Origin: Neoarius graeffei
Lineage: Eukaryota > Chordata > Actinopteri > Siluriformes > Ariidae
Length of the DNA: 64,000 nucleotides
Assembly (NCBI RefSeq): GCF_027579695.1
Contig: NC_083582.1
Coordinates: 1,563,378-1,627,377 of the forward strand
Direction: 5' to 3'
Below the pieces are notes generated by a model. The model made no database searches. It worked only from the letters and a program-made list of their open reading frames with translations, and was not told the DNA's origin. The first letter of the stretch is position 1, and every line of letters begins with the position of its first letter. Shown in pieces: positions 28,361 through 64,000 of this stretch. The translations under genes and the position numbers were made by a program.

Positions 28361-28528
28361 CAGTGGCGGCTGCTGGTTTTTAAAACAGGGGAAGCCCATT
28401 TTACGCATTCATCGTAAAACCTGTAGGCCGGATATCAAAGCATAGAAAGGTGTGCCCCATTAGCATAGTGAACTAGACAACCCCACCTAGTGGCAGAAAG
28501 TATTTTTGCTTGTACATTTCATGTTATA

Positions 28529-29336: not shown

Positions 29337-29339
29337 ATA

Positions 29340-30382
29340 GTCTGGCTTGCCAGGCTAGTGCCTCATATCCTTAATCAAAAATATCAAACATCCAAAAATC
29401 ACTGGCTATTCAACGAAGAGCCTTGAACATCATACCCTGATATGCAACACAGAGTCTTTAACACAACACCCAGCTGTGCAACACATCCTTGACCATCTTC
29501 TGCAACACAGTCTGGAAATTCATAACCAGGTAGGCTATGCAACACACAGAACCTTGAATATTATACCCAGGTATAACCTATAACACAGAGCCCACCATTC
29601 TCTTAACATTACTGAACAATATACACACTTCACATTCATGAACATTATATGATGCACACTATTTATACACAAATTCTGCCCTCCGCTCCTTTTCCAGAAA
29701 ATGGTCTGTGACCCTGTCATACCAGCTGGTTGTGCTTTCCAGAGACTTCACCAATTTCTGTTAGCAGCTAGCACTGCAGATCCCAATAAGGCTCAAGCTA
29801 GCCTACAACCAGATTGAACTACAAATGAAATAAACAAGTGAATTCACGAATGATCAAACTGATAGAATGGATGAAAGTTAACAGAGCACAACGAGTAATA
29901 TTTACATTTATTTACAGAGTAATGTACAGAGACATCAATGAGAAGAAACGTTTATATGAAAAGAAATTCGGACAGCACTTTGGCACACGACTGCACTTTC
30001 TCGACATCCGCTAGGGACTGACTGATCATGCTTCCGTGTTCCTCGCCAACGCCGAAGTACAGAGGCTGCCCTCCTCACTACCTCCAATAATCCTTCATCA
30101 GCCCGGCTTCTTGCCCCTCCCACTGTCTCGTTTAGTCCCAGAGAAGCCTGGCTTCCCTGGAAGTGACGATTTTGTCGATTTTAACCAATAACAACTAGCT
30201 GAAATTGGCTGTTCAGAGCCATCTCATAGACTGCAACGGAAACCTGGCTGCCAGCACATAGAGCCCATTGAAATAAGAAAGGTTACAGCCAGTGTTGCCA
30301 GATTGGGCTGTTTTAAGTGCATTTTAGCGGGTTTTGAACATATTTTGGCTGGAAAACGTCAGCAGTATCTGGCAACGCTGGT
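29340..30382. other. Left arm of the outer element, no gene recognised
   Basis: This is non-coding sequence of the hAT-like element. A short minus-strand open frame at 29935-30123 shows no known motif. A GAAGCCTGGCTTCCC near-palindrome at about 30143 echoes the GGGAAGC...GGCTTCCC motif at the element's right end and may be a subterminal motif. Confidence 0.5.
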
Positions 30383-31019
30383 TACCCAGATAGTAAAAGG
30401 GCGTTGATTCGACGGGGAATCATCGGCATGTTCTTCGACCATACGCCGTCAAATCATCGTGGATCACCGGCGTTGATTCAACACCGCTTTGCTCATACGA
30501 GTTTGCATTGAAACGACGTTGAAAAGTGGATGGTGGCCGACAGAGAATAGACCCCCTTTCACCCTTTATTCAACTACGGATTTCAGTCGATTTATAGTTT
30601 AATTTTCGGCGATGATTCATCCAACTTTACTTCCTGTTTTATGTACAACAGGAAGGCTACAAATTAAGCAAAACAGGCTAAATTAAACTAGCTAACAATA
30701 AAGCATCGGGGCTCTTGCCTAGAATGAACACACACATGCATACTTCAACCATGAAAGTGAAACTTAATTTATATCAATGTGCGTAGGCTACGTCCTGTTT
30801 AATGTACAACAGGATATAAAAATGCATGCAACAATGCACCTCTCCTAATGTTTGTCAAGCTATCTAATGAGGCATAACTTTTAACATTTATAAGGAACAG
30901 AACACACTTGAACAAGTTCTTAGAAACATTTTATGATTTATTTATAATTTATAATTGTGGCCTATATTCCTCCTGCGGCACAGACACCCGTACATGGAAA
31001 CAGAAAAACATAACCAAAA

Positions 31020-33530
31020 TTAATTTGATGCAGCATTGATAAAGAAAGTCAGCAGTAGGCTATGGGTTTCTAAATGCCACCCTACCTCACGTCTCCTCAT
31101 CCCTCCCTCTCTCTCTGGCGCATACTTAAGCCACTTCTTGATTGCGTCACTAAAAGTAGCGTGTGTGCTCCCTGGCAGCTGCTTTTGTAGAGCATCTGAA
31201 AGAAAAAGAACAAAACAACATTGAGACTTTGCATGGTGATAATTGTTAAAGTTTGAGTTGTTAAGACTATGCACGTCACACTCTAGTGGTAGGTGGCAAG
31301 TAATGGTACTAGTACAGAAAATATATGTAAAAATCAGAAACCATAGATGTGAATCTTGTGACAATTTAAACGGGATTAAAAAAAAAAAACATTTTAATTT
31401 CCCCATTGACACAAAGCGGAAATAGAAATGCCACTACCTGACCGTTCGTCACTCAGTCAGCCTCCCTGGACTTGCCTGCACACCTGCTTTTTCTGAGTAA
31501 GGCACCTGGTGAGTTTCTTAATCCTTTTTAATCCTTTGCATCTTTCACAATATGTTTGTCATTGTCGTTATAATCGTAATGTTACAGTTAGTGAAGGAGT
31601 TATCAAAGAACGTTTAGAAGTAGTGTGCAAGTACTTGCGACAGCTTACTATTTTACCCTCTTTTACAGCTTTGTGCACATGCATAACCTACCAAACAGGA
31701 CATCATGGATCTTGGTGTCCTTAAACGCAGTTTTTTCCCCCTTTCCAGCCCAGTTAAATTGGCTGGCCAAGCTGTTGACCAGGAGGCTACGCAGCATCCG
31801 CCTCACTGTGACCCCTACGTCGGTTCCTCCACAAAGGGCTAAGGTAGACACCTGATAGAATAAAATGTAGCATGAAGACAATAATGAGAAAGTATTCAGT
31901 GTTTATCATAATATCATTGTGAATCAATGAAACAAAGTATTTGTGTTTCTTTTTGCAGGTGTTGCAGATGACTGGAAAGGAAAGGTAAGACTCAATAAGT
32001 ACCATTAGCTGCTTTTGTTTGGCATCTTCCTTCACCAGGGCCTCTGCTGCCAAAAACTCCTCCATGGTGGAGAGTGGGAGCTTGATTAGGGGTGATGTCT
32101 GGGGTGTGTCTTGTCTCCCCATCTCTCTCCTTAGGGCCCTGACCTCTTGCGCCAGCCTTCCTACTTCCCCCTTCAGCTCCCTGTTTTCCTCCCTCAGCTG
32201 GTCAAGGAGAGCGATGACTGTGCTGATGCCCATGTCTGTTAAGTAACACCAAACATTAGGACTTTTATTTCATATTGCTGGTCATTTTTGAACAGTGATT
32301 ACAGTTGATGACTCACCACGCAGCAACTGATTGTTCCCCTGTTGCGATGGCAGAGGTGTGGCTGAAATATCAGAGAGTACAATTTAGTTCACTTCAAGGT
32401 GCGCCTTAATTTAATTTCTGTTCTAAATTCACAATTTTCATGTTGATTGATTGATTTCCTCTTTGACTTACCATGGAAGCGGTGACGTGGCTGGGGTGAA
32501 TCTGAAAAATTGTATAGTCAGTTGATCAAAACGCATCTACATAGATATTTGTTTGTTGTTTTGTTTTGTTTTTTTAGTCGTTTATGGCATAAATCAAGGC
32601 AATGCATAGTTACCATGGGTTAGTGGCTGGCTGTGAAGGAAAGGGCCTGGCGGGGTTTCTGACGACGGTGAATCTGAAAAATAGTAAGCAGTCAGTTGAT
32701 CAAAACATATCTTCACTTACTCATTGGTATTTTAATTTCTGGCATAAATAAAGGAAATGCATAGTTACCATGAGTTAATGGCTGGCTGTGAAGAAACAGG
32801 CCTGGCTGGGTGTCTGAAGACGGAAATGAAAGCATTATTACTTCAGACAACTTCTAGGTCTTTAGTAGAACAACAACAACAAGTGGTACAGATAGTCACC
32901 TTCATTAAGGGAGGGGAATTGCCACTCGCTGTCCAGCTGAGTGGCGTCAATAGATGGTGGCCTCCTCCCCCTACGGCTTGGTCCTGCCTCCTCCTCGCTG
33001 TCCTCCTCCAAATACCTTTTGTTTGGTCTTAAAAACAAACCCAGGACCTTACTGACACAGCTCAAAACACAAACAAAACCGTAATTGAACTTATAACTGC
33101 AAGTTGTGATTTAAAAAAGAAAACATTTTTACCGTCTTTTCCTTGGCCCCATCTCACCATCATCCGATTGCAGGTCTGCTGTAAGGCAGCCTTCCTCAAG
33201 CGATTGGGTCAGGTAACGTCTTGCTTTGGCAAAGGTGCCTGAAAGGGAAGGCAGTCTTAATGAAATTGGCTTAATGCAGTATTGAAGTATTGTCACTGGT
33301 TTAATGAAGTAGCTATGCAGCTCACCACAGGTTGCCAGCACCCTTATTTTTTGATGGAATCACCATCCTTGTCCCGAGGGGGTGCAGTTCATGGCGGCCT
33401 TCACAGCTTTGTTTCCGCCAAAGGGTGGCCAGTAGCATCCCACTTCTCCGTCAACATCGACTACCCAGCTGGACGACACAACTGCTGCACTCCGGTCTTG
33501 GAATTCCACAACTTTCCAAATCTGTGCCAT
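31020..33530 (-). pseudogene. Ten-exon DUF4806-domain gene of the inner transposon
   Basis: Exons on the minus strand: 33530-33326, 33238-33133, 33027-32900, 32813-32769, 32673-32614, 32501-32472, 32361-32317, 32235-32003, 31851-31692 and 31195 to 31086 (donor) or 31020 (stop). All introns are GT-AG and all junction phases agree, giving about 396 codons. The start MAQIWKVVEFQD and the CYWPP motif match the usual N-terminus of this family. Exon 3 is acidic/basic and nuclear-like. Exon 8 has a coiled coil (DQLREENRELKGEVGRL) leading into LPLSTMEEF. Exons 9-10 complete the domain with FNWAGKGEKTAFKD and IKKWLKYAPER. One in-frame TGA (33360-33362) interrupts exon 1; the frame continues after it (KIRVLATC). 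It lies just downstream of the transposase and is probably an accessory transposon protein, by position only. Confidence 0.72.
32472..32820 (-). repeat. Tandem duplication of mini-exon plus intron units
   Basis: Exons 4, 5 and 6 of the DUF4806-like gene lie in repeated units about 155-170 bp apart. GCATAGTTACCATG occurs at about 32604 and 32759, and AGTCAGTTGATCAAAAC at about 32517 and 32688. Exons 4 and 5 both encode a PG-FLHSQPLTH segment. Confidence 0.75.
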
Positions 33531-33646
33531 CTATAATAAAAAAAAATAAAAAAGTACTCCATGGAAAGGATAGTTAGTGCCTGCCATCCAGCTGGAGTAC
33601 TCCAACTGTCCAGATTCCTTCTAATGCATAAGTAAAGATGTGTTTC

Positions 33647-33679
<33 letters not shown>

Positions 33680-33719
33680 TTTTTTTTGTGTTTTTTTTTT
33701 TTTTTCTTCCCATATAGGT

Positions 33720-35707
33720 TTACGAATGGTGATGAAGAGGGATTGCCACAAAGGTCTCTCCATCTGGGAACAACACACATTTGCCCTGGACAACCTCAAG
33801 CTGGTCAACGTTAAGGCAGCTGTCTATGCCAAATACTCTGTAGCAGCCAATGCTTGTGGAGGGGCAAGGATAGTGGAAATATGACTCCCTCCTCTTGAAT
33901 TTCATGTAAACCACAAAGACAGAGTCACCATGTTTAATTATGTTTTTCACCATTACGATTTCATTTTTAATCACTAGGCAATCATCGCCCTGCTTTGAAG
34001 AAAAACAGAAATCATTGAAATGCACTTTTTTAAATTGCTGGCCAGAACTTAAGTGTTGGGGTAATGGGCCCTCCTGGTGTGGGTGTAACAACTGTGGTTG
34101 TGTAGGTGGTGGTGGAAATAAACAAACTGGCTCCTCTGAAAGGCATTTGACAACCTGTTGTAAAGGTTGAGATGGCTTGCGTAGCATTTTTTTTTAGTTT
34201 ACCCAAATAATTCTCGTAAGAAAAGGATGAGATGTTGTCTAGGGAACCATACTGGCGGTACTCATGTGTCAGATGTATTGTTTGATGTACGCTAAACACA
34301 ATCTCGTCTTTACCATACACCTCTCCAAAATGCTTTACAAAAGCCATTAACAATTTTTCGGAAAAACAAACCATACTTTCAGAAATGTTTGGTGTGAGTA
34401 GCAAAAACATGGCCACAGAAAACATGAAGTTTTCATAGAGATCTTGTGGAAGAATGTCCCTCAGAACTAATGGCCCACTGTAAATCATAAATTGGCGCAG
34501 CTCTGCCGCTTTCCACCTATCAGTTTTGGCGAGTTCACGGGGTTTCCGTGCAAATTCAGCTGGAGTATAGGGACGAAGCTGTATTAACTTTTCGGAGATG
34601 GCTTTAATGGCTCTTGTAGGCTGCCTTGTAGAGTTTTTCCCTCTCATCCAAAAATGTATCAACTTTTTCATAACGCCAAGGCAACATAAATGCATATAAT
34701 CTATTGGGAAGGCAGACACCATTTTCACCAGACCCGTCAGAAGACTTCTGTTGATGTGGTGGTCCTCATCTACCATATTTTCAAACTCCTCGTCTGACCT
34801 TAGCCTAACATCAGTCTCAGGATACGTCATTTTTTTTCTGCCAAATACCAGTCTGATGGCATTTATCGCATCCAGAGTACCCATTATGGCATTTAATTTG
34901 TTTTACAAATGCTCGAGCAGGAGCATCACAAATGAAGGATGAAATGGCCACCCTCAGCTTTCTACCTCCAAATGTTAACCCATTGCAAAGCAGATCAGAG
35001 AGATCTTTAACAAACTGCGTCAGATAATCAAACACATTGGAGGGTTTTCCAGGGCCACAAAAGATGCCAACTAAAAACGGTGTTCTGGTGTAATCGCAAT
35101 CAATCAGTGCCAAAATAGGCCAAACCTGAAGCCTGGTGCTTTTGAAAATAGGGAGACCATCGATGTTAAATTGAACTCTTATTGTTTGAATAACATCTGG
35201 TAAATGGATGGTGCTTAATTTGGACAAAATTCCCTTTGCCAAGCCAAAATGGAAGTATTCCCCATTACCTACGGTCTGTAATGGTACTGCAGGCTTAGTG
35301 CCCAATAAGGTCCTAGCATCCTTGGGCAGTTCAGGGTGGCTTGTTCTCAAAATGGTCAACAGAGCAGTAATGGCAATCAAAGGCACAGAGAATGATGCAG
35401 CCCAGTGTTTTAATTTTTGGTGAAGCCCTGACTCTTCAAAAGAGTCACCATCAATATGACTGTCACTGTCACCCTCTGAAGACATGCTACTGCTGTCAGA
35501 CTCTGCATCACTGCACCCTCCCAACTCAACAGAATCCCCACCATCCTCATCTAAACCCATTGATGATGCAGGCCTGGGTGATGCAATTGAAGGAGAGACT
35601 TGAGCAGCAGGATTACCCAGAGCTGACTCAAAATCGGACAGAATCTGCCTTTCTGACATTTCAGTAGCTGTCACAACACGTCTTCTTTTTGACCAATAAG
35701 AAGCCAT
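33720..35707 (-). pseudogene. tnp2-like transposase with two frameshifts
   Basis: The chosen start is MASYWSKRRR at 35707; an upstream ATG at 35794 is in frame but less typical. An acidic, serine-rich linker follows. The tnp2 region has FLVGIFCGPGKPSNVFDYL, the CDAPARAF motif and a GYSGCDKC zinc cluster. After a frameshift come YPETDVRLRSDEEF and FPIDYMHLCCLGVMKKLIHF, then a C-terminal part with FSYENYLGKLKK. After a second shift the frame runs LRKPSQPLQQVVKCL and ends VAIPLHHHS at 33720. Both shifts are single extra bases in A runs on the coding strand: A8 at 34837-34830 and A9 at 34195-34187. The motif order is that of animal proteins related to plant TNP2 (EnSpm/CACTA) transposases. As assembled the gene is broken, but homopolymer errors could explain both breaks. 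Confidence 0.8.
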
Positions 35708-35839
35708 GTTCTCTCCCCTAAAGAAATAAATGTCTGCAGTACCTTTTGAGGGAATGACGGGGTAGTGGTCTTCAGGTTCCATTGAGGTAAACATGGGGGG
35801 AACAAAGACAACATTTACGTCATTACATTTGAAATAACC

Positions 35840-35842
<3 letters not shown>

Positions 35843-35883
<41 letters not shown>
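35843..35883. repeat. (AC)n microsatellite
   Basis: About 20 uninterrupted AC units just upstream of the transposase gene on its strand. Confidence 0.95.
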
Positions 35884-35888
<5 letters not shown>

Positions 35889-35977
35889 TCAAACAATTGT
35901 TTTATAGAAAGTTCTGTTTTAATACCAACAATGTTTTAACAATGTCTGGAGTCATGTTCTAATGGCTGCGACCCATA

Positions 35978-36212
35978 CTGCCCTACAAAGCCAAAAGACC
36001 TTAATATCACTCAAGGTCAACATGAGTTATTGCCATTTTTGGAACAGAGGACATCAGTTGTATCATGTGATGAATTATTTCGAGTCATTTCTGTTTTTTT
36101 CTGGTAACAATAAGATGTCGTTTTTACCGTAACTTCCAAAAGCAAAGGGAAAACCAAGGCAGAAGCCTGTAATGAGTCTGATGAGTTAAGGTCTTTTGGC
36201 TTTGTAGGGCAG
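35978..36212. mobile_element. TA-flanked MITE with long perfect inverted repeats
   Basis: A perfect 30-bp inverted repeat joins 35975-36004 and 36186-36215, reading CTGCCCTACAAAGCC... inward and flanked by TA on both sides. It is about 235 bp with no coding capacity. TA duplication and short length suggest a Tc1/mariner-type MITE inserted in the right arm of the inner transposon. Confidence 0.7.
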
Positions 36213-36283
36213 TATAGGCCTACAGCGTTACAAAGCCCAGCCCCCTCAAGCCGGGTATAGAGCTACCGGTTATAACCACGGCC

Positions 36284-36655
36284 TATATACTCGATTGAAA
36301 TGCTTTTTCTTCACTCCATCAAGACCACTACTTTGACTAGTTTTCGACTAAACAATGCATCTGCATGTTTATTGTATTAGTTGAGGGAATATAAGCAATT
36401 TCGTTCGTGGTACCTCAAACAAAGTGGTCACTACAGAAGCATTGGTAGCCTGGATAATCTTTAAAGTTCATGGCCGCGAGGCACGACCCATGGCTACACA
36501 AAAGAACAGGTCAGCTCGAAACGACATGCGACCTAGGCCTACATGCTCGATTTAACGCTAAGTTTTCACTCCAACAAGACAAGTACTTCGACTCGTTTTT
36601 CAATTGAATAATGCATCTGCATTGTTGTTGTTTCAAATGGATACTAGTTGAGGGA
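36284..36655. repeat. Diverged ~110-bp duplication in the inner transposon
   Basis: The segment at about 36284-36395 (TCGATT..., TTCACTCC, CAATGCATCTGCAT, AGTTGAGGGAA) recurs in the same order at about 36543-36655 with point changes. It is an internal direct repeat about 255 bp apart. Confidence 0.7.
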
Positions 36656-36903
36656 AATTTCTCCAACGCGTGATATTACTGAAGTTCATCATAACTTCTT
36701 AAACTGCTTGAAACTGTATTCAAAATTCCCTTTATTAATAGTGACTGAATAATGGTACGTACCAGATGTCCAGGGATGAATGGAAATGTAGCGTGGTCCA
36801 GTGTTTTTCTCAATGTTGTTTCAATGGTCCAAGTGTAACAGCAGGCCGATCCACAAGAGAGTCGCGATCCAACCGAGTGGTGTGGGAGTTTCACGTGCAC
36901 CCA

Positions 36904-36930
36904 GGTATATAACGAAAATGATGTCATCCA
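36904..36930 (-). promoter_or_regulatory. Possible promoter of the transposase gene
   Basis: On the minus strand a CRE-like TGACATCA lies about 10 bp upstream of a TATA-like GTTATATACC (36904-36913). This is about 1.2 kb upstream of the transposase start, which would leave room for a 5' UTR or intron. Motif-only call. Confidence 0.3.
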
Positions 36931-38934
36931 GTAAACAGCAGTGGTAATCGCACTGCATTATGGGACATTATGAATTAAATAATTATAATTATAAATTATA
37001 ATTATAAATTAGAATTAATTTATGATCATCTTGGAAATGTTAAGTTATTTGCAAAAAAACTTTAAAAGATAGGTCAAATCCATTGCTGAGTGTGGGTGCA
37101 ATCAGTTAATTATTGATATTAAGTGATCAATCTCGTTAAATCAGTCTCATTAAATTTTGAAGGTTAATAATTAAAATGAATCAATCCCATTGAATCGTTT
37201 AATTTGACTCGTTTGAATTGAATCATACCATAGAATCAGTCTCATTCAGTGAATCATTTAGTGAATCGTTCAATGATTCGTTTAGTGAATCATACCATTA
37301 ATCCTGGTGCTTAATAATAAATTACCAAACAGCTAAATTATGGTATATTTCCAAATTATTACGATCACTTACCATATTACATAACTTGTATATGCACCCT
37401 TTTGAATTCGAGGGAGACTGGGGACTCCATGTATATATTGTTGTTCACACAAATAAACACAGTTTGTTTAATAAATGAATTTATTATACAAAGATAAAAA
37501 GAAAAATAATAAATCAATATATACAAGCAGTGAGGGGTGTGTGTGTGTGTAGGACTTGACCATGTGTTTAGCCTCATGTAGCTAACATGGTGGAGGCCTA
37601 GCTTGTTGGTAGCTAAACAAAAGAATGTTATCTAAACAGAACAAAGGATTAGCTCTGTGTTTAGCCTTGTGTTGCTAGTGTGAGTTTGCTAAAGGCCCTT
37701 TGGCCTAGCTAAAGTGTGTTTGTTAGGCCTGGTGAGGCCTACTGAGCACGTGTTGCTAAAGACAAGGGTATTAGCCGTAGCTAACTAAAAGCTAGCTTGT
37801 AGATTTCTAGCTGAGGTGTGGTTTATCAGGCCTGATGGCCTGCTGAGCACATGGTAGGCCTTGATTAGCTTTGTGTTGCTAAGCAGACAAAAGGGAAGCT
37901 GTAGCTAACCCACTAGCTCATAACCATACTGAGTCCACTGAAATCTTGAGATCAAGATGTATAATAATGAAATTATAATGTTAGTAAGAATAAAAGAGAG
38001 AGAAGCATGCGCAGCCTATCTATTAAACAATTGAGAGAACATAGAACCAAAATAAATCAACACGCTGCGTGTCTAACAGTGTAACAGATAAACCTGGGTT
38101 TAAATTCACACTATTTCAAATAAAAGCAAATTCCTAAGACTATCCTAATTATGCCCAAATGCCAAAATCTTACTTAATCCTGCCTTTAGCAAGATATGAA
38201 GAACTATTCGCCGGTGTAGTTTCGGGCCTCGCCGTGGGAGCACGTGAGCCGCTCGTGATGGAGGCGCAGAAAACTTTCGGGTCCAGCGGAGCACTTGGGT
38301 GGTTCCCGTGGAAAGCAGAGGATTCTTGGTCCGAACCTCAGCGTTCGTGAGGAAAAGTCTCTGATCAGAATAAGATGCACAGCGCTTTTGAGTTAAAAAG
38401 GATTCAATCGCTTCTTAACTTTTGACTGCCTGGGCTGCGGTCGTGACGTCACTTCTAATGCAAGTAAACCGGTTGTAACTCAGGTTGAGTTTAAAGATCG
38501 CGCGACTCTAGAGTTTACCTTTGCCAAGGGTAAGAAAGAAAACCGCGCTGAGTGATGGATCTTACAAGAAAGAAGACGTCTTTCTGGGTGGAGAGCGCCT
38601 CTTTATACGTCCAGATTCATCGGAAGCCAAACGTGAGAGACAAAGATGGTGGCGCTTCCGCTTGGATTTATGCGTGCATGGCAGACTGACGTAGGTGGTG
38701 ACGTAGGTCACACGGAAGTTGCCTGGGAATTGTAGTTCTGACACAAGATGGTGGCATGATACCTACACTGAGTTAAGAAAGTAAACTAGTTTTTGTTCTT
38801 TTTTTTATCATTTACTTATCATTATCACTTATATCATTTACTCGTGTAAGCAGGATAAGACAAACAGTGGCAATTTATATTCTGAACAATTAGTTGCTCA
38901 TCCTACCAATGTTGAAAACTGGCCTGCAAAAGTG
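36930..38934. other. Right arm of the inner transposon, no gene recognised
   Basis: This stretch is AT-rich at first (an ATTATAATTATAA run near 36980, repeated GAATCATT words at 37180-37290). Next come many TAGCTAA/TTAGCC words at 37560-37920, then a more GC-rich part with a palindromic CRE, TGACGTCA, at 38444-38451. No convincing exon or transposon protein was found. A further nested insertion in 37380-38770 is possible but its ends were not identified. Confidence 0.5.
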
Positions 38935-39371
38935 ACGATGGTTCAACATCGTATATTCGACCTTCTCTGACGGTCGACAGATCAACCTTTACCCACGGTG
39001 ATTCAACAGTGATAAATCGACCTTCTCCGACGGCGGAGAAATCGACGTTTCACGGCGCCGTTTCAGCGTTGATTTTCTGACTTACGATGGAAACCGACCA
39101 TTCTGACCAAGAATCGGCACCGTTTCAACGTCCCTCTGCTATCTGGGTACAGCCTGGCAGCAAAGGTGATTCTCGTAGCGAACTGCAAGTTCGTCAGACA
39201 TCACTCAAATAAGTTACAGGATAGTTATGAACGTAAATATAATCTTGGGCATATATTATGTTATGCAAGTTATTGTTTTAATGAGAATTCAACGTCATAG
39301 ATGCCGCAGTTTGGGGAGAGAATTTTAGGGGAAGCTCGGCTTCCCTTGTTGTCTCTGAGAAATTGCCCCTG

Positions 39372-40161: not shown

Positions 40162-40290
40162 ATGTCCTCCTCTGAACTGGATTATATCCCTCCGTGGTGG
40201 ATTTATTGGCTTCACCAGTTTCCTCACATCAATCTGAGACTCCAACAAATCAACAACAGCTTCAACCCTCAGGAGGAAAACTACCAGCAG
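40162..40290 (+). CDS. ttyh2: Tweety family member 2, exon 1 (N-terminal 43 residues)
   Basis: ATG at 40162 opens 43 codons ending ...EENYQQ at 40290, followed by the donor GTCAGT. The DYIPPWWIYWLHQFPH stretch matches the conserved extracellular N-terminus of vertebrate TTYH proteins (PWWV-WLH-PH), and the YQ(Q/E) end meets the SLLF start of exon 2 exactly as in TTYH2. TTYH proteins are five-helix plasma-membrane proteins reported in connection with chloride/volume-regulated currents; their channel role is debated. The junction phase is 0. Oddity: the end of this exon and its donor are the seed of the 9.4-kb minisatellite that follows. Using any later donor would shift the frame or meet the TAA at 40339-40341, so the first copy is the only one that keeps the protein open. 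Confidence 0.9.
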
Positions 40291-43200
40291 GTCAGTGTTT
40301 CACATCCTAAACTACCAGCAGGTCAGCGTTTCACATCCTAAACTACCAGCAGGTCAGCGTTTCACATCCTAACTACCAGCAGGTCAGCGTTTCACATCCT
40401 AAACTACCAGCAGGTCAGCGTTTCACATCCTAAACTACCAGCAGGTCAGCGTTTCACATCCTAAACTACCAGCAGGTCAGCGTTTCACATCCTAAACTAC
40501 CAGCAGGTCAGCGTTTCACATCCTAAACTACCAGCAGGTCAGCATTTCATATCCTAAACTACGAGCAGGTCAGTGTTTCATATCCTAAACTACCAGCAGG
40601 TCAGCATTTCACATCCTAAACTACCAGCAGGTCAGCATTTCACATCCTAAACTACCAGCAGGTCAGCGTTTCACATCCTAAACTACCGGCAGGTCAGCGT
40701 TTCACATCCTAAACTGCCGGCAGGTCAGCGTTTCACATCCTAAACTACCGACGGGTCAGCGTTTCACATCCTAAACTACCGGCAGGTCAGCGTTTCACAT
40801 CCTAAACTCCCGGCGGGTCAGCGTTTCACATCCTAAACTACCGGCGGGTCAGCGTTTCACATCCTAAACTACCGGCGGGTCAGCGTTTCACATCCTAAAC
40901 TACCGGCGGGTCAGCGTTTCACGTCCTAAACTACCGACGGGTCAGCGTTTCACATCCTAAACTCCCAGCGGGTCAGCGTTTCACATCCTAAACTACTGGC
41001 GGGTCAGCGTTTCACATCCTAAACTCCCGGCGGGTCAGCGTTTCACATCCTAAACTCCCGGCGGGTCAGCGTTTCACATCCTAAACTACCGGCAGGTCAA
41101 CGTTTCACATCCTAAACTCCCAGCGGGTCAGCATTTCACATCCTAAACTACCGACGGGTCAGCGTTTCACATCCTAAACTACCGACGGGTCAGCGTTTCA
41201 CATCCTAAACTACCGGCGGGTCAGGGTTTCACATCCTAAACTACTGGTGGGTCAGCGTTTCACATCCTAAACTACCGGCGGGTCAGCGTTTCACATCCTA
41301 AACTCCCAGCGGGTCAGCGTTTCACATCCTAAACTCCCAGCGGGTCAGCGTTTCACATCCTAAACTCCCGGCGGGTCAGCGTTTCACATCCTAAACTACC
41401 GGCGGGTCAGCGTTTCACATCCTAAACTACCGGCAGGTCAGCGTTTCACATCCTAAACTACCGGCAGGTCAGCGTTTCACATCCTAAACTCCCGGCGGGT
41501 CAGCGTTTCACATCCTAAACTCCCAGCGGGTCAGGGTTTCACATCCTAAACTACTGGTGGGTCAGCGTTTCACATCCTAAACTCCCGGCAGGGTCAGGGT
41601 TTCACATCCTAAACTACTGGTGGGTCAGCGTTTCACATCCTAAACTCCCGGCGGGTCAGCGTTTCACATCCTAAACTACCGGCAGGTCAACGTTTCACAT
41701 CCTAAACTCCCAGCGGGTCAGGGTTTCACATCCTAAACTCCCGGCGGGTCTGTGTTTCACGTCCTAAACTCCCAGCGGGTCAGGGTTTCACGTCCTAAAC
41801 TCCCGGCGGGTCAGCGTTTCACATCCTAAACTACCGGCAGGTCAACGTTTCACATCCTAAACTCCCAGCGGGTCAGCGTTTCACATCCTAACCTCCCGGC
41901 GGGTCAGTGTTTCACGTCCTAAATTACCAGCAGGTCAGCGTTTCACATCCTAAACTACCGGCAGGTCAGTGTTTCACATCCTAAATTACCGGCAGGTCAG
42001 TGTTTCACATCCTAAATTACCGGCGGGTCAGCGTTTCACATCCTAAACTACCGGCGGGTCAGTGTTTCACATCCTAAACTCCCAGTGGGTCAGTGTTTCA
42101 CATCCTAAACTCCCAGCGGGTCAGTGTTTCACATCCTAAACTACCGGCAGGTCAACGTTTCACATCCTAAACTCCCAGCGGGTCAGGGTTTCACATCCTA
42201 AACTACCGGTGGGTCAGCGTTTCACATCCTAAACTCCCGGCGGGTCAGCGTTTCACATCCTAAACTACCGGCAGGTCAACGTTTCACATACTAAACTCCC
42301 AGCGGGTCAGGGTTTCACATCCTAAACTACCGGCAGGTCAACGTTTCACATCCTAAACTCCCAGCGGGTCAGCGTTTCACATCCTAGACTACCGGCGGGT
42401 CAGCGTTTCACGTCCTAAACTACCGGCAGGTCAACGTTTCACATCCTAAACTCCCAGCGGGTCAGGGTTTCACATCCTAAACTACAGGCGGTTCAGCGTT
42501 TCACATGCTAAACTACCGGCAGGTCAAAGTTTCACATCCTAAACTCCCAGCGGGTCAGGGTTTCACATCCTAAACTACTGGTGGGTCAGCGTTTCACATC
42601 CTAAACTCCCGGCGGGTCAGCGTTTCACATCCTAAACTACCGGCTGGTCAACGTTTCACATCCTAAACTCCCAGCGGGTCAGGGTTTCACATCCTAAACT
42701 ACTGGCGGGTCAGGGTTTCACATCCTAAACTCCTGGCGGGTCAGCGTTTCACATCCTAAACTACCGGCAGGTCAGCGTTTCACATCCTAAACTACCGGCA
42801 GGTCAACGTTTCACATCCTAAACTCCCAGCGGGTCAGGGTTTCACATCCTAAACTACAGGCGGGTCAGCGTTTCACATCCTAAACTACCGGCGGGTCAGC
42901 GTTTCACATCCTAAACTCCCGGCGGGTCAGCGTTTCACATCCTAAACTACCGGCAGGTCAGCGTTTCACATCCTAAACTACCGGCGGGTCAGCGTTTCAC
43001 ATCCTAAACTACCGGCGGGTCAGCGTTTCACATCCTAAACTACCGGCGGGTCAGCGTTTCACATCCTAAACTACCGGCGGGTCAGCGTTTCACATCCTAA
43101 ACTACCGGCGGGTCAGCGTTTCACATCCTAAACTACCGGCGGGTCAGCGTTTCACATCCTAAACTACCGGCGGGTCAGCGTTTCACATCCTAAACTCCCA

Positions 43201-46200
43201 GCGGGTCAGCGTTTCACATCCTAAACTCCCAGCGGGTCAGCGTTTCACATCCTAAACTACCGGCGGGTCAGCGTTTCACATCCTAAACTACCGGCGGGTC
43301 AGCGTTTCACATCCTAAACTCCCAGCGGGTCAGCGTTTCACATCCTAAACTACCGGCAGGTCAGCGTTTCACATCCTAAACTACCGGCGGGTCAGCGTTT
43401 CACATCCTAAACTACCGGCGGGTCAGCGTTTCACATCCTAAATTACCGGCGGGTCAGCGTTTCACATCCTAAACTACCGGCGGGTCAGCGTTTCACATCC
43501 TAAACTCCCAGCGGGTCAGCGTTTCACATCCTAAACTACCGGCAGGTCAGCGTTTCACATCCTAAACTACCGGCAGGTCAGCGTTTCACATCCTAAACTA
43601 CCGGCAGGTCAGCGTTTCACATCCTAAACTCCCGGCAGGTCAGCGTTTCACGTCCTAAACTACCTACGGGTCAGCGTTTCACATCCTAAACACCCAGCGG
43701 GTCAGCGTTTCACATCCTAAACTCCCAGCGGGTCAGGGTTTCACATCCTAAACTCCCAGCGGGTCAGGGTTTCACATCCTAAACTCCCGGCGGGTCAACG
43801 TTTCACATCCTAAACTCCCAGCGGGTCAGCGTTTCACATCCTAGACTACCGGCGGGTCAGCGTTTCACGTCCTAAACTACCGGCAGGTCAACGTTTCACA
43901 TCCTAAACTCCCAGCGGGTCAGGGTTTCACATCCTAAACTACAGGCGGTTCAGCGTTTCACATGCTAAACTACCGGCAGGTCAACGTTTCACATCCTAAA
44001 CTCCCAGCGGGTCAGGGTTTCACATCCTAAACTCCCGGCGGGTCAACGTTTCACATCCTAAACTCCCAGCGGGTCAGCGTTTCACATCCTAGACTACCGG
44101 CGGGTCAGCGTTTCACGTCCTAAACTACCGGCAGGTCAACGTTTCACATCCTAAACTCCCAGCGGGTCAGGGTTTCACATCCTAAACTACAGGCGGTTCA
44201 GCGTTTCACATGCTAAACTACCGGCAGGTCAACGTTTCACATCCTAAACTCCCAGCGGGTCAGGGTTTCACATCCTAAACTACTGGTGGGTCAGCGTTTC
44301 ACATCCTAAACTCCCAGCGGGTCAGCGTTTCACATCCTAAACTACCGGCAGGTCAGCGTTTCACATCCTAAACTACCGGCAGGTCAGCGTTTCACATCCT
44401 AAACTACCGGCAGGTCAGCGTTTCACATCCTAAACTCCCGGCAGGTCAGCGTTTCACGTCCTAAACTACCTACGGGTCAGCGTTTCACATCCTAAACACC
44501 CAGCGGGTCAGCGTTTCACATCCTAAACTCCCAGCGGGTCAGGGTTTCACATCCTAAACTCCCGGCGGGTCAACGTTTCACATCCTAAACTCCCAGCGGG
44601 TCAGCGTTTCACATCCTAGACTACCGGCGGGTCAGCGTTTCACGTCCTAAACTACCGGCAGGTCAACGTTTCACATCCTAAACTCCCAGCGGGTCAGGGT
44701 TTCACATCCTAAACTACAGGCGGTTCAGCGTTTCACATGCTAAACTACCGGCAGGTCAACGTTTCACATCCTAAACTCCCAGCGGGTCAGGGTTTCACAT
44801 CCTAAACTACTGGTGGGTCAGCGTTTCACATCCTAAACTCCCGGCGGGTCAGCGTTTCACATCCTAAACTACCGGCTGGTCAACGTTTCACATCCTAAAC
44901 TCCCAGCGGGTCAGGGTTTCACATCCTAAACTCCTGGCGGGTCAGCGTTTCACATCCTAAACTACCGGCAGGTCAACGTTTCACATCCTAAACTCCCAGC
45001 GGGTCAGGGTTTCACATCCTAAACTCCTGGCGGGTCAGCGTTTCACATCCTAAACTACCGGCAGGTCAGCGTTTCACATCCTAAACTACCGGCAGGTCAA
45101 CGTTTCACATCCTAAACTCCCAGCGGGTCAGGGTTTCACATCCTAAACTACAGGCGGGTCAGCGTTTCACATCCTAAACTACCGGCGGGTCAGCGTTTCA
45201 CATCCTAAACTCCCGGCGGGTCAGCGTTTCACATCCTAAACTCCCGGCGGGTCAGCGTTTCACATCCTAAACTACCGGCAGGTCAGCGTTTCACATCCTA
45301 AACTACCGGCGGGTCAGCGTTTCACATCCTAAACTACCGGCGGGTCAGCGTTTCACATCCTAAACTACCGGCGGGTCAGCGTTTCACATCCTAAACTACC
45401 GGCGGGTCAGCGTTTCACATCCTAAACTCCCGGCGGGTCAGCGTTTCACATCCTAGACTACCGGCGGGTCAACGTTTCACATCCTAAACTACCGGCGGGT
45501 CAGCGTTTCACATCCTAAACTCCCAGCGGGTCAGGGTTTCACATCCTAAACTACCGGCAGGTCAACGTTTCACATCCTAAACTCCCAGCGGGTCAGCGTT
45601 TCACATCCTAGACTACCGGCGGGTCAGCGTTTCACGTCCTAAACTACCGGCAGGTCAACGTTTCACGTCCTAAACTCCCAGCGGGTCAGGGTTTCACATC
45701 CTAAACTACAGGCGGTTCAGCGTTTCACATCCTAAACTCCCGGCGGGTCAGCGTTTCACATGCTAAACTACCGGCAGGTCAACGTTTCACATCCTAAACT
45801 CGCAGCGGGTCAGGGTTTCACATCCTAAACTACTGGTGGGTCAGCGTTTCACATCCTAAACTCCCGGCGGGTCAGCGTTTCACATCCTAAACTACCGGCA
45901 GGTCAACGTTTCACATCCTAAACTTCCAGCGGGTCAGGGTTTCACATCCTAAACTACTGGCGGGTCAGCGTTTCACATCCTAATCTCCCAGCGGGTCAGG
46001 GTTTCACATCCTAAACTCCCGGCGGGTCAGCGTTTCACATCCTAAACTACCGGCAGGTCAGCGTTTCACATCCTAAACTACCGGCAGTTCAACGTTTCAC
46101 ATCCTAAACTCCCAGCGGGTCAGGGTTTCACATCCTAAACTACAGGCGGTTCAGCATTTCACATCCTAAACTCCCGGCGGGTCAGCGTTTCACGTCCTAA

Positions 46201-49200
46201 ACTACCGGCAGGTCAACGTTTCACATCCTAAACTCCCAGCGGGTCAGCGTTTCACATCCTAAACTCCCGGTGGGTCAGCGTTTCACATCCTAAACTACCG
46301 GCAGGTCAGCATTTCACATCCTAAACTACCGGCGGGTCAGCGTTTCACGTCCTAAACTACCGGCAGGTCAATGTTTCACATCCTAAACTCCCGGCGGGTC
46401 AGCGTTTCACATCCTAAACTCCCGGCGGGTCAGCGTTTCACATCCTAAACTCCCGGCGGGTCAGCGTTTCACATCCTAAATTCCCGGCGGGTCAGCGTTT
46501 CACGTCCTAAACTACCGGCGGGTCAGCGTTTCACATCCTAAACTCCCGGCGGGTCAGCGTTTCACATCCTAAACTCCCGGCGGGTCAGCGTTTCACATCC
46601 TAAACTCCCGGCGGGTCAGCGTTTCACATCCTAAACTACAGGCGGTTCAGCGTTTCACATCCTAAACTCCCAGCGGGTCAGCGTTTCACATCCTAAACTC
46701 CCAGCGGGTCAGGGTTTCACATCCTAAACTACAGGCGGTTCAGCGTTTCACATCCTAAACTCCCAGCGGGTCAGCGTTTCACGTCCTAAACTACCGGCAG
46801 GTCAATGTTTCACATCCTAATCTCCCAGCGGGTCAGGGTTTCACATCCTAAACTCCCGGCGGGTCAGCGTTTCACATCCTAAACTACCGGCAGGTCAGCG
46901 TTTCACATCCTAAACTACCGGCAGGTCAGCGTTTCACATCCTAAACTACAGGCGGTTCAGGGTTTCACATCCTAAACTACAGGCGGTTCAGCGTTTCACA
47001 TCCTAAACTCCCAGCGGGTCAGGGTTTCACATCCTAAACTACAGGCGGTTCAGGGTTTCACATCCTAAACTACAGGCGGTTCAGCGTTTCACATCCTAAA
47101 CTCCCGGCGGGTCAGCGTTTCACATCCTAAACTACCGGCAGGTCAACGTTTCACATCTTAAACTCCCAGCGGGTCAGCGTTTCACATCCTAAACTACCGG
47201 CGGGTCAGCGTTTCACGTCCTAAACTACCGGCAGGTCAACGTTTCACATCCTAATCTCCCAGCGGGTCAGGGTTTCACATCCTAAACTACAGGCGGTTCA
47301 GCGTTTCACATCCTAAACTCCTGGTGGGTCAGCGTTTCACATCCTAAACTACCAGCAGGTCAACGTTTCACATCCTAAACTCCCAGCGGGTCAGGGTTTC
47401 ACATCCTAAACTCCCGGCGGGTCAGCGTTTCACGTCCTAAACTCCCGGCGGGTCAGCGTTTTACGTCCTAAACTCCCGGCGGGTCAGCGTTTCACATCCT
47501 AAACTACCGGCAGGTCAGCGTTTCACATCCTAAACTACCGGCAGTTCAACGTTTCACATCCTAAACTCCCAGCGGGTCAGGGTTTCACATCCTAAACTAC
47601 AGGCGGTTCAGCATTTCACATCCTAAACTCCCGGCGGGTCAGCGTTTCACGTCCTAAACTACCGGCAGGTCAACGTTTCACATCCTAAACTCCCAGCGGG
47701 TCAGCGTTTCACATCCTAAACTCCCGGTGGGTCAGCGTTTCACGTCCTAAATTACCAGCAGGTCAGCGTTTCACATCCTAAACTACCGGCAGGTCAGCGT
47801 TTCACATCCTAAACTACCGGCGGGTCAGCGTTTCACGTCCTAAACTACCGGCAGGTCAATGTTTCACATCCTAAACTCCCGGCGGGTCAGCGTTTCACAT
47901 CCTAAACTACAGGCGGTTCAGCGTTTCACATCCTAAACTCCCGGCTGGTCAGCGTTTCACATCCTAAACTCCCGGCGGGTCAGCGTTTCACATCCTAAAC
48001 TCCCGGCTGGTCAGCGTTTCACATCCTAAACTCCCGGCGGGTCAGCGTTTCACATCCTAAACTACCGGCGGGTCAGCGTTTCACGTCCTAAACTACCGGC
48101 AGGTCAATGTTTCACATCCTAAACTCCCGGCGGGTCAGGGTTTCACATCCTAAACTACAGGCGGGTCAGGGTTTCACATCCTAAACTACAGGCGGTTCAG
48201 CGTTTCACATCCTAAACTCCCGGCTGGTCAGCGTTTCACATCCTAAACTCCCGGCGGGTCAGCGTTTCACATCCTAAACTCCCGGCTGGTCAGCGTTTCA
48301 CATCCTAAACTCCCGGCGGGTCAGCGTTTCACATCCTAAACTCCCAGCGGGTCAGCGTTCCACATCCTAAACTCCCGGCGGGTCAGCGTTTCACATCCTA
48401 AACTCCCGGCGGGTCAGCGTTTCACATCCTAAACTACCGGCAGGTCAGCGTTTCACATCCTAAACTACCGGCGGGTCAGCGTTTCACGTCCTAAATTACC
48501 GGCAGGTCAACGTTTCACATCCTAAACTACCGGCAGGTCAGCGTTTCACATCCTAAACTCCCAGCGGGTCAGGGTTTCACATCCTAAACTACCGGCGGGT
48601 CAGAGTTTCACATCCTAAACTACCGTCGGGTCAGCGTTTCACATCCTAAACTACCGTCGGGTCAGCGTTTCACATCCTAAACTACCGTCGGGTCAGCGTT
48701 TCACATCCTAAACTCCCGGCGGTTCAGCGTTCCACATCCTAAACTCCCGGCGGGTCAGCGTTTCACATCCTAAACTCCGGGCGGGTCAGGGTTTCACATC
48801 CTAAACTCCTGGCGGGTCAGCGTTTCACGTCCTAAACTCCCGGCGGGTCAGGGTTTCACATCCTAAACTCCCGGCGGGTCAGCGTTTCACGTCCTAAACT
48901 CCCGGCGGGTCAGGGTTTCACATCCTAAACTACCGGCGGGTCAGCGTTTCACATCCTAAACTACTGGCAGGTCAGCGTTTCACATCCTAAACTACTGGCA
49001 GGTCAGCGTTTCACATCCTAAACTACTGGCAGGTCAGGGTTTCACATCCTAAACTCCCAGCGGGTCAGGGTTTCACATCCTAAACTCCCAGCGGGTCAGG
49101 GTTTCACATCCTAAACTACCGGCTGGTCAGGGTTTCACGTCCTAAACTCCCGGCGGGTCAGCGTTTCACGTCCTAAACTCCCGGCGGGCGGGTCAGCGTT

Positions 49201-49670
49201 TCGCGCCCTAAACTCCCGGCGGGTCAGCGTTTCACGTCCTAAACTCCCGGCGCGTCAGCGTTTCACGTCCTAAACTCCCGGCTCGTCAGTGTTTCGCGTC
49301 CTAAACTCCCGGCGGGCGGGTCAGCGTTTCGCGTCCTAAACTCCCGGCGGGCGGGTCAGCGTTTCGCGCCCTAAACTCCCGGCGGGCGGGTCAGCGTTTC
49401 GCGCCCTAAACTCCCGGCGGGCGGGTCAGCGTTTCGCGCCCTAAACTCCCGGCGGGCGGGTCAGCGTTCCGCGCCCTAAACTACCGGCGGGCGGGTCAGC
49501 GTTCCGCGCCCTAAACTACCGGCGGGCGGGTCAGCGTTCCGCGCCCTAAACTCCCGGCGGGCGGGTCAGCGTTCCGCGCCCTAAACTCCCGGCGGGCGGG
49601 TCAGCGTTTCGCGTCCTAAACTACCGGCGTTTCGCGTCCTAAACTCCCGGCGGGTCGGCGTTTCACGTCC
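40278..49670 (+). repeat. ~9.4-kb, 31-bp minisatellite derived from the ttyh2 exon 1 splice donor
   Basis: The unit is AAACTACCAGCAG (the exon 1 end) followed by GTCAGTGTTTCACATCCT (the intron start), 31 bp, repeated about 300 times. The first copy is the real exon/intron junction at 40290/40291. Early copies keep ACTACCAGCAG. Middle copies alternate ACTACCGGCAG, ACTCCCAGCGG, ACTCCCGGCGG and ACTACAGGCGG. Distal copies (about 49180-49620) are GC-rich, with an added CGGG giving 35-bp units and TTTCGCGCC. Almost every copy keeps the GT of the donor. Longer shared variant strings (for example near 43640-44220 and 44440-44780) show block duplication inside the array. Confidence 0.97.
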
Positions 49671-50157
49671 GCAGAATGTGTTTATTCTCTAAAATAAACC
49701 ATCAGCACTTCAGCTGTGAAAAACGGTTCGTGTTCCATCATTAAGACGTGTCTGATGCTGTAATGCAGGTGATAAACGTTTCTCTGAGTGCGGAGTGTGT
49801 TGGTCGTCTGACTTCCTGTCGGTCTGAAGGGTGAGAACGAGCTCATCCATGTGATTCCCCCGATTCATGAGGGAGTGGAGCTGTTTCCTGTGGAAGACAG
49901 GAAGAGGAAATGACTGGTATTTAACCCACGGAGCTCCTGGGATCCGTTTGGACTGAAATGTGTCCGTTAGTGTTCATTAGCATCCCGGTGTGTTTTTGTT
50001 TACTTTTTCCTGTTCATTTGACCGCCTTTTTAAAATTAAACACGTAAACTATTCAAATATTTCTAAAAATATTTTCAGATATCTTTTTTCATCACTCCAT
50101 CACCTTCAGACTCTTCAGTGTTCAGTATTTCTTTGCAAAATTCAGGAGTATTCCTGA

Positions 50158-52319: not shown

Positions 52320-52501
52320 TCTCTGCTCTTCCTGGTGTGTGTATCCTCGGCTGCGTTGGGTGTGAATCTCCTCGCGCTCGCTCTCTATCTGAGTTTCCTG
52401 TGCTGCTGTCGGAGGAACAGCGAGGCTGATGAGGAGGAGACGAAGAAGCCGAGCTCACACTGTGTCACCTGGACAGCCGTCACTGCTGGACTTCTCAGCT
52501 G
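52320..52501 (+). CDS. ttyh2: Tweety family member 2, exon 2
   Basis: Acceptor TTGCAG at 52314-52319; 182 nt ending in a split codon TG|T. It starts SLLFLVCVSSAALGVNLLAL, the first transmembrane helix of TTYH proteins. A cysteine-rich cytosolic boundary (LCCCRRN) follows, then an acidic/lysine linker and HCVTWTAVTAGLLS, the start of the second membrane segment (HSCCITWTAVVAGL in mammalian TTYH2). With exon 1 it totals 311 nt, so the intron is in phase 2, and exon 3 supplies the T of a Cys codon. The donor is the first GT of a (TG)n microsatellite. Confidence 0.93.
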
Positions 52502-52799: not shown

Positions 52800-53660
52800 T
52801 TTGTTTCTCAGAACCTCGGAGTGTCTGGGTCTGAAATCATCCAGGTTCTGGAGCAGTGGTGATGGAAAGGTCCTCCAAGTTTCAACCAACAAACCTTTCC
52901 ATTCATCCTCACAAGTGCATCAACAATCTGCTCATTTAGTCTTCATTAAAGCCCACAGATGCTCTACAGGGTTCAGGGCGGGGCTGTAGGGTATAGGGTG
53001 GGACTGTGGGGGGGGTTATGCTACGAAGTTGTGGGGTTTAGGGGTTTAGGGCGGGTCTGTAGGGGTTTAGGGCGGGTCTGTAGGGGTTGAGGGCGGGTCT
53101 GTAGGGGTTTAGGGCGGGTCTGTAGGGGTTTAGGGCGGGTCTCTGGGAAGTGTTCTTACAAAAGACAGCTGAAGGATCATCATCCTGATGAAAAATCCAC
53201 TTCTGTCTTTTGAATAATTTCTTTGCTGATTTCTGCAGAGTTTCTTCCAGAACGTTTCTGTAAACTTCGACATTTATGATGCCATCAGTGAACACGAGCT
53301 CCTCAAACCCCTGTAGGAAAACCAGCCCCCGACTCCTCTGTGATCTGTAGAACCCTTACTACCCTTCCTGCAGGTTGTTTGAAATTCTTCTCCTGGCTTT
53401 CAGATCTTATCAGATCCGTCCAAGCTGTGTTTGACTTTATCTGAAAATTAGACGGTTCTCCAGAAGCTGCTGTCTGCCTGTGCATGTTCTGCATGTTCTT
53501 TTGCAGAGCCTTTGTGATTCTGGAGGCTGATGAATGGTTTGTGCTGCGTTACTCTCCCTGCGTACTCGAGCTCGTTGAGCCTGTTTTGAATCGTTTGTGC
53601 TCTCGCTGTGTCTCGTAAATCTCATTGATGCTGTTTTTCTTGATTTGTCTCGCGGTGATT
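52800..53660 (-). pseudogene. Tc1-like transposase remnant
   Basis: On the minus strand, ELVFTDGIINVEVYRNVLEE and KWIFHQDDDPSAV (53300-53160) match the second catalytic region of Tc1-like transposases (FxDGxxNxxxYxxIL..., QQDNDP). PALNPVEHLWALMKTK (about 52990-52940) matches the third (P-LNPIEHLW). Between them the sequence is interrupted by a 21-bp tandem repeat. Upstream fragments (53303-53625) in different frames probably belong to the N-terminal part. Multiple stops and frameshifts: a dead copy inside ttyh2 intron 2. The ends were not identified. Confidence 0.75.
53035..53145 (-). repeat. 21-bp coding-derived minisatellite in the Tc1 remnant
   Basis: Five copies of a GGGTTTAGGGCGGGTCTGTAG-like 21-bp unit (last copy variant). 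Read on the minus strand each unit is PALNPYR, seven codons, in frame with the transposase LNP motif region. Confidence 0.9.
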
Positions 53661-63696: not shown

Positions 63697-63790
63697 TATC
63701 GCAGTTGGCGTGGGTTTCTATGGTAACAGTGAGACCAATGATGGAGTGTATCAGCTGACCTACTCCCTGTACAACACCAATCACACACTG
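63697..63790 (+). CDS. ttyh2: Tweety family member 2, exon 3 (3' end uncertain)
   Basis: The acceptor TTTTTTCACAG ends at 63696. The first base completes the split Cys codon from exon 2. The exon reads IAVGVGFYGNSETNDGVYQL then TYSLYNTNHTL, very close to the mammalian TTYH2 segment (AVGVGFYGNSETNDGAYQL) that follows the second membrane helix. The FYGNSETNDG form distinguishes TTYH2 from TTYH1 (SETSDG) and TTYH3 (GETCDG), which supports the paralogue call. I place the donor at CTG|GTGGGC (63790/63791), which leaves phase 0, because sequence beyond (VGRAFF, stop) no longer resembles the family. The rest of the gene, encoding most of the protein, is outside the window. Confidence 0.85.
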
Positions 63791-64000
63791 GTGGGCAGAG
63801 CATTTTTTTAAGGATTTTCCACTAGGAGACCAACTGGTCTGGGCAATACAATCACAGGCCCCAGAGTCCATGCGGCTGCACCGCTGCGGCATATTCTGTG
63901 ATGCAAAGTGGTTCACCAATCACCATCCAGACAAACACACTACAGTGACTACACAGCTATCAAGAGCAATTACCAAGCACAAATGTTATGTCAAAGACAC

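What the first reader, a model, noticed from the sequence alone, without database searches (positions are those of the whole stretch)
40278..49670. A host gene's 5' splice site has been amplified into about 300 tandem copies
The 31-bp unit of this 9.4-kb minisatellite is the ttyh2 exon 1/intron 1 junction: the last 12-13 exon bases (codons for N-Y-Q-Q), the GT donor and 18 intron bases. The first copy is the functional junction at 40290/40291. I know of no described minisatellite seeded by a coding exon end plus its donor at this scale. It presents the spliceosome with hundreds of near-identical donors in a row. Only the first keeps the frame: 31 is not a multiple of 3, and a TAA follows at 40339-40341.
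Basis: partly seen in the sequence, partly recalled or inferred. Interest (0 to 1): 0.9.

Follow-up and report, generated by a model that had tools for sequence, protein, structure and literature searches.

The report
Splice-site repeat in broken catfish gene
In a sea catfish, the end of the first exon of the gene ttyh2 together with its splice signal was copied about 300 times in a row, in a duplicate of the gene that is itself broken; it is a large example of a known kind of repeat and a good place to test how cells choose between many copies of one splice signal.

Summary
A 9.4-kb array (window 40278-49670, 302 units by my parse) repeats the ttyh2 exon 1/intron 1 junction: 13 exon bases, the GT donor, 18 intron bases. 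The exon came first: its last residues, YQQ, are in 120 of 120 listed homologues, and a ttyh2-like paralogue on C21 has the identical 18 bases AACTACCAGCAG|GTCAGT without this array.

Three things change the reading. (1) The window copy is a broken duplicate: a 424-bp hAT-like insert splits exon 3. A more complete copy lies 1.01 Mb downstream; there two letter-identical 31-mers open a far more degenerate 31/23-bp array. (2) The family is local but not single-locus: related arrays at 19 further places, all listed hits on contig C14 within 1.02 Mb on one strand. (3) The donors are not near-identical: 282 of 302 units keep GT, only 4 keep the functional nine bases, and the consensus is the weaker CGG|GTCAGC.

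Precedents exist, notably the human CBS 31-bp VNTR (24 exon + 7 intron bases). This is an extreme variant of a known kind. Splicing consequences are untested.

The parts
40162..40290 (+). ttyh2 exon 1 (copy A), ATG to ...E-N-Y-Q-Q, ends in phase 0
   Evidence: tblastn and translation; solved TTYH2 match with exon 2; identical over 150 bp to C14:2614174-2614323
40288..40296 (+). native donor CAG|GTCAGT (cut after 40290)
   Evidence: 8.6 bits by a recalled weight matrix, U1 pairing -7.5 kcal/mol
40278..49670 (+). minisatellite of the exon 1/intron 1 junction, 302 units by wrap-around parse, consensus AAACTACCGGCGGGTCAGCGTTTCACATCCT
40339..40341 (+). TAA in frame with exon 1, read if a donor beyond unit 2 is used
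49671..49690 (+). 3' boundary of the array, GCAGAATGTGTTTATTC..., shared with copy B
52320..52501 (+). ttyh2 exon 2 (end placed by P0001)
63697..63795 (+). 5' part of ttyh2 exon 3, broken off here
63796..64000 (.). window part of a 424-bp hAT-like insert in exon 3 (goes on for 219 bases past the window; 13-bp perfect TIR, TSD CTGGTGGG); in-frame stop at 63809-63811

Best explanation
The array is a minisatellite born by tandem duplication of a 31-bp segment (13 exon + 18 intron bases) at the exon 1/intron 1 junction of ttyh2 in the sea catfish Neoarius graeffei. SHOWN: the first unit is the junction, both in the window copy and in a more complete copy 1.01 Mb downstream; the exon end and donor sequence exist without the array in a paralogue; all listed relatives of the array lie on C14 at 1.60-2.63 Mb on one strand; the window copy of the gene is broken in exon 3. 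INFERRED: growth by slippage and unequal exchange, with A/T-to-G/C variants rising in the ttyh2 arrays; dispersal with segmental duplications; probably no function of its own. In a transcribed copy only the first donor gives the full reading frame in the cases translated, so the later and mostly weaker donors are at most a splicing load.
For: First unit = junction in copies A and C. YQQ at the exon end in 120 of 120 listed homologues, of 634 hits. Paralogue on C21 with the same 18 bases and no 31-bp array in 3.1 kb. Four searches hit C14 only. Shared 3' boundary in A and B. Recurrent blocks of 8-10 identical units, and 14% identical neighbours against at most 12% at any lag in 200 order shuffles. 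Broken exon 3 with TSD and TIR. Later donors give stops.
Against: Type-2 arrays, in whose six fetched stretches I saw no ttyh2 exon, keep the junction letters at consensus positions 1-24 better than the ttyh2 array bodies do, which a satellite-first history would also give. The solved TTYH2 structures listed end the exon in YQE, not YQQ. No relative of the species could be searched at DNA level, so the array-free ancestor is inferred from one paralogue. That paralogue has a different GC-rich minisatellite 25 bases into its own intron 1, so it is not free of repeats.
Confidence: 0.85

Rival explanations
1. Satellite first: a pre-existing 31/32-bp satellite (the type-2 arrays) invaded ttyh2 intron 1 and the exon end was overwritten by conversion, so the match to the exon is secondary.
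For: Type-2 arrays keep junction letters at consensus positions 1-24 in all five arrays parsed and show no ttyh2 exon in the six stretches read.
Against: Exon end conserved as YQQ in 120 of 120 listed homologues; identical 18 bases in the paralogue on C21; no listed hit outside C14.
Confidence: 0.05
2. Assembly effect: copies A, B and C are haplotypes or misplaced pieces of one locus, so the broken gene and the long array are one allele of a hypervariable ttyh2 intron 1, or partly artefact.
For: Copy C has a 5000-base N run right after its array; B has exon 2 but no exon 1 in the 10 kb fetched; divergence between copies is only 1.0-3.2%.
Against: HiFi, Bionano and Hi-C assembly (PMC11579386 passage). 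A and C differ by an 11-kb and a 424-bp insert with target duplications and by very different arrays. Type-2 blocks recur at spacings of about 117-182 kb (hit places), which speaks for true duplication.
Confidence: 0.1
3. The array is used: competing donors 31 nt apart make a ladder of transcripts with early stops, and so array state tunes ttyh2 output.
For: Copy C opens with two letter-identical 31-mers, so two donors identical over 13 bases upstream and 18 downstream; donor 2 would give a stop after 89 codons (exon 2 of copy A used). CBS: more repeats were linked to lower activity (PMC5188458 passage).
Against: No transcript data seen. P0001, a deposited protein, joins ENYQQ directly to SLLF. 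Most array donors are weaker than the first. The window copy is broken.
Confidence: 0.12

Closest known systems
Human CBS 31-bp VNTR at the exon 13/intron 13 boundary, c.1444_1467+7(16_21)
   Same: Unit of 31 bp made of an exon end, its donor and the first intron bases (24 + 7), tandem, in a coding gene (PMC2630376 passages; PMC5188458 passage).
   Different: 16-21 copies, in a working gene, length polymorphism known. Here 302 units, 13 + 18 bases, in a broken duplicate, with strong drift of the donor and a local satellite family; polymorphism unknown.
Internal tandem repeats at exon-intron boundaries of human genes in segmental duplications (De Grassi and Ciccarelli 2009)
   Same: Minisatellites at exon-intron boundaries of recently duplicated genes: 27 intron modifications; units of about 30 bp (PMC2812944, outline and passages).
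   Different: About 4 copies and 160 bp on average over all variable repeats; some had transcript support. Here 9.4 kb and no transcript data.
Intronic VNTR of human ABCA7
   Same: A VNTR said to affect splicing (PMC5954066, title and start of abstract in a listing).
   Different: Intronic by its title; not known to me to contain the gene's own exon end and donor.
Intron gain by tandem genomic duplication of AGGT-bearing exon sequence
   Same: Tandem duplication multiplies potential splice signals (PMC4974935, listing only).
   Different: Here an existing donor was duplicated and no new intron is proposed.

Membership tests
Exon-intron-boundary minisatellite (CBS type) | Repeat unit holds the end of a coding exon and its GT donor | tested here: met
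   13 exon + 18 intron bases; first unit is the junction in copies A and C
Exon-intron-boundary minisatellite (CBS type) | Tandem array of minisatellite period | tested here: met
   Period 31, 300.4 copies by TRF
Exon-intron-boundary minisatellite (CBS type) | Length polymorphism between alleles | not testable with these tools
   One assembly only; copies A, B and C differ in array length and make-up, but they are placed as separate loci
Exon-intron-boundary minisatellite (CBS type) | Effect on splicing or gene activity | not testable with these tools
   No RNA reads available; translations only
ttyh2 (Tweety family) | Tweety exons in order with TTYH2-like sequence | tested here: met
   Pfam PF04906 and tblastn hits in order; best solved match TTYH2
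Intact ttyh2 gene (window copy) | Open reading frame through the exons to the C-terminus | tested here: not met
   424-bp insert and in-frame stop in exon 3; last Tweety exons not found for this copy
Genome-wide satellite DNA | Presence on several chromosomes | tested here: not met
   All listed hits of four searches on C14; the tool scores only its best candidates, so this is not proof of absence elsewhere

The most novel reading that the evidence does not exclude
The ttyh2 junction array makes splice-site choice a heritable, array-dependent trait. In the more complete copy, two letter-identical donors 31 nt apart, followed by further copies, feed a ladder of early-stop transcripts that sets ttyh2 output; in that gene selection has eroded the downstream donors, while the broken copy was free to regrow hundreds of them.
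Probability: 0.12. Interest if true: 0.7.

Novelty: new variant of a known kind. Interest (0 to 1): 0.42.

Why it matters
It is a natural series for splice-site choice. One genome holds a junction with two identical donors, a broken copy with 302 units graded in donor strength, and a paralogue with the same 18 junction bases and no such array. A long-read transcriptome of the species and short-read genomes of 66 species (N. graeffei and one outgroup among them) exist (PMC11579386 passages), so donor use and the age of the expansion can be checked. It also shows a minisatellite born at a coding exon end and then found in many places of one duplicated megabase.

Tried and rejected
Satellite-first origin: rejected at 0.05 on YQQ conservation and the paralogue.

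Coding or exonised array: rejected; 31 is not a multiple of 3 and every case translated with a donor beyond the first ends in a stop (donors 2, 3, 4 and 7 of A; 2 to 5 of C).

Selection against downstream donors in the more complete gene: not adopted as the main reading. In copy C, donors of 7 bits or more are 7 of 10 scored in the 5' piece but 0 of 8 and 1 of 50 in the 3' pieces; yet copy B, with no exon 1 seen, has 0 of 29, so drift and shared ancestry suffice.

Recombination-driven GC bias: a possibility only. The A/T-to-G/C excess is 4.7- to 27-fold by unit counts in A, B and the C pieces, but rests in A on 6 against 4 variant types at 5% or more, and is absent in type-2 arrays (0.66-1.11). 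A link to promoter-directed recombination is background from PMC5519329 (passages: PRDM9-alpha of Ictalurus punctatus lacks KRAB and SSXRD); nothing was tested in this species.

Donor scores use a weight matrix recalled from memory and U1 pairing by ViennaRNA, not MaxEnt. The hAT label is recalled from TSD length and ends; no family search was run on the insert.

Paper searches whose listings showed nothing on this array. One search served background.

Full report
What is there. Window 40278-49670 holds a head-to-tail array of a 31-bp unit (TRF 300.4 copies, 40278-49629, and a short tail). My wrap-around parse gives 302 units, 288 of them 31 bp and ten of 35 bp; the latter stand near the 3' end by eye. 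The first unit, AAACTACCAGCAGGTCAGTGTTTCACATCCT, is the last 13 bases of ttyh2 exon 1 (40162-40290) and the first 18 of intron 1. Exon 2 begins at 52320 after TTGCAG and continues in phase. The joined product matches solved TTYH2 at E=7.4e-31 and the N-terminus of the deposited protein P0001. The exact 31-mer of the junction occurs once in the array; the form that differs from it only by T19C occurs seven times.

Where it is. The window is G000:C14:1563378-1627377. P0001 is named 'protein tweety homolog 2-like isoform X3 [Neoarius graeffei]' on a contig of 81,271,077 bases, the length of C14. The N. graeffei assembly is 2.34 Gbp in 38 scaffolds (PMC11579386 passages), which fits G000.

The gene copy in the window is broken. 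Against the downstream copy (L067), exon 3 of the window copy is split at 63795/63796 by 424 bp with perfect 13-bp terminal inverted repeats and an 8-bp target duplication CTGGTGGG; this points to a hAT element (class recalled). The frame stops at 63809-63811. Further exons of this copy follow downstream, but the last Tweety exons on C14 were found only at 2650456-2650825, and tblastn found nothing past human residue 341 in the 90 kb after the window. P0001 carries the variants of the downstream copy (NTNRTLVG, TATIEYYR). I call the copies A (window), B (exon 2 at 2431264; no exon 1 in L009, the 10 kb fetched) and C (exon 1 at 2614175, last Tweety exon to 2650825). C's exon 2 was not seen; L011 3378-8377 is N. 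Substitution divergence A-C is 1.0-1.4% in four longer segments and 2.6-3.2% in two short ones; A-B is 1.2 and 1.9% in two segments.

The array in the other copies. In C it also starts at the junction, with two identical 31-mers and then two CAG|GTCAGC units, then a mixture of 31- and 23-bp units, cut by a foreign stretch of about 4.7 kb. The 23-bp units are the 31-mer short of eight bases, in at least two forms by eye; one form loses the GT. In the longest C piece 50 of 129 parsed units keep GT in register. B has 56 parsed units, starts mid-unit after other sequence, and shares with A the 3' boundary TCC|GCAGAATGTGTTTATTC.

The family beyond the window array. Searches with the A body, the junction end, a type-2 array and a C-type piece (166, 80, 58 and 18 matches, not listing all) list hits on C14 only, between 1603655 and 2623377 and all on +. 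Outside array A I count 19 places: 1656407, 1877253, 1882823, 1978436, 1979551, 2059306, 2063440, 2121387, 2176661, 2180585, 2255054, 2310797, 2314733, 2378118, 2427379 (B), 2462909, 2486195, 2614291 and 2619570 (both C). Apart from B and C, those I read are 'type-2' arrays, mostly of 32-bp units: six stretches, L014 and L062-L066, none with a ttyh2 exon that I could see. 1877253 and 1882823 look like one array split by an insertion with TCCACAAA on both sides. The five type-2 arrays parsed have consensus units equal to the junction unit at positions 1-24. Counts are lower bounds because the tool scores only its best candidates.

Which came first. At the exon end, YQQ is found in 120 of 120 listed homologues of 634 hits: 112 by pattern and 8 by eye. 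N. graeffei and four other catfishes read ENYQQ. Against this, the listed solved TTYH2 structures read YQE. The ttyh2-like paralogue on C21 has GTC AAC TAC CAG CAG | GTCAGT, 18 bases identical to the junction, and no 31-bp array in its 3.1 kb. So the exon end and donor are old and the array is derived. The same paralogue has another GC-rich minisatellite, of 28/21-bp units, from 25 bases into its intron 1 (C21:40204617-40206124). The two further paralogue exon-1 loci that I looked at (L039, L047) show no minisatellite-like array there, only short-period repeats.

Donors. Of 302 units in A, 282 have GT in register without gaps: CGG|GTCAGC 130, CGG|GTCAGG 43, CAG|GTCAGC 41, CAG|GTCAAC 26, TGG|GTCAGC 11, CAG|GTCAGT 4, others fewer. 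With a recalled weight matrix the first donor scores 8.6 bits and U1 pairing -7.5 kcal/mol; the commonest body donor scores 5.2 bits and -6.2. Four units reach 8 bits, 43 lie at 7-8, 181 at 5-7, 54 below 5. No GTAAG or GTGAG occurs in the array. Use of donor 2 leads to a stop after 89 codons; donors 3, 4 and 7 of A, and 3 to 5 of C, give 59 (for C with exon 2 of A).

How the array changed. Mean identity to the junction unit is 0.926 in the first 25 units, 0.828 in units 276-300 and 0.857 in the last two. Runs of 8-10 identical units recur at lags 8, 17, 25, 26 and 47. Neighbouring units are identical in 14% of cases; in 200 order shuffles the largest value at any of 119 lags was 12%. This fits block duplication. 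Changes from A/T to G/C outnumber the reverse per site 5.7-fold in A and 4.7- to 27-fold in B and the C pieces, but not in type-2 arrays (0.66-1.11). These are unit counts, not independent events; by variant type at 5% or more the score in A is 6 against 4.

Known kinds. The human CBS VNTR is written c.1444_1467+7(16_21): 24 exon and 7 intron bases, 31 bp, 16-21 copies (PMC2630376 passages). More repeats were linked to lower CBS activity (PMC5188458 passage; the primary paper, Lievers 2001, was seen only as a reference). In human segmental duplications 27 intron modifications by tandem repeats at exon-intron boundaries are described; the variable repeats have on average 30-bp units, 4 copies and 160 bp (PMC2812944, outline and passages). 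The ttyh2 array is this kind of thing at far higher copy number, in a broken duplicate, with a local satellite family around it.

Verdict. Observation right, seeding right, setting and consequences revised. Functional effects remain a question for transcript data.

Noticed in passing
window 1-24282: A 24-kb array of ACCCATAACCCACAC-like units; a 400-base piece of it hits many other places, all listed ones on C14 between 1.525 and 2.602 Mb and mostly on + (10 of 307 candidates scored).
   Followed up: partly
window 28361-39371: An 11-kb stretch absent from copy C, flanked by GTGATGAG on both sides and starting CAGTGGCGGC: looks like a large DNA transposon inserted 5' of exon 1.
   Followed up: partly
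L037 1649-3141 (C21:40204617-40206124): A different GC-rich 28/21-bp minisatellite begins 25 bases inside intron 1 of the ttyh2-like paralogue, so two ttyh2-type genes of this genome carry minisatellites at the start of intron 1.
   Followed up: partly
C14:1877253-2378255: Type-2 array places recur at spacings of about 117-182 kb, as if blocks of that size were tandemly duplicated (hit places).
   Followed up: no
window 53039-53142; L009 8985-9109: A 21-bp repeat TAGGGGTTTAGGGCGGGTCTG downstream of exon 2, 5 copies in A and 6 in B.
   Followed up: no
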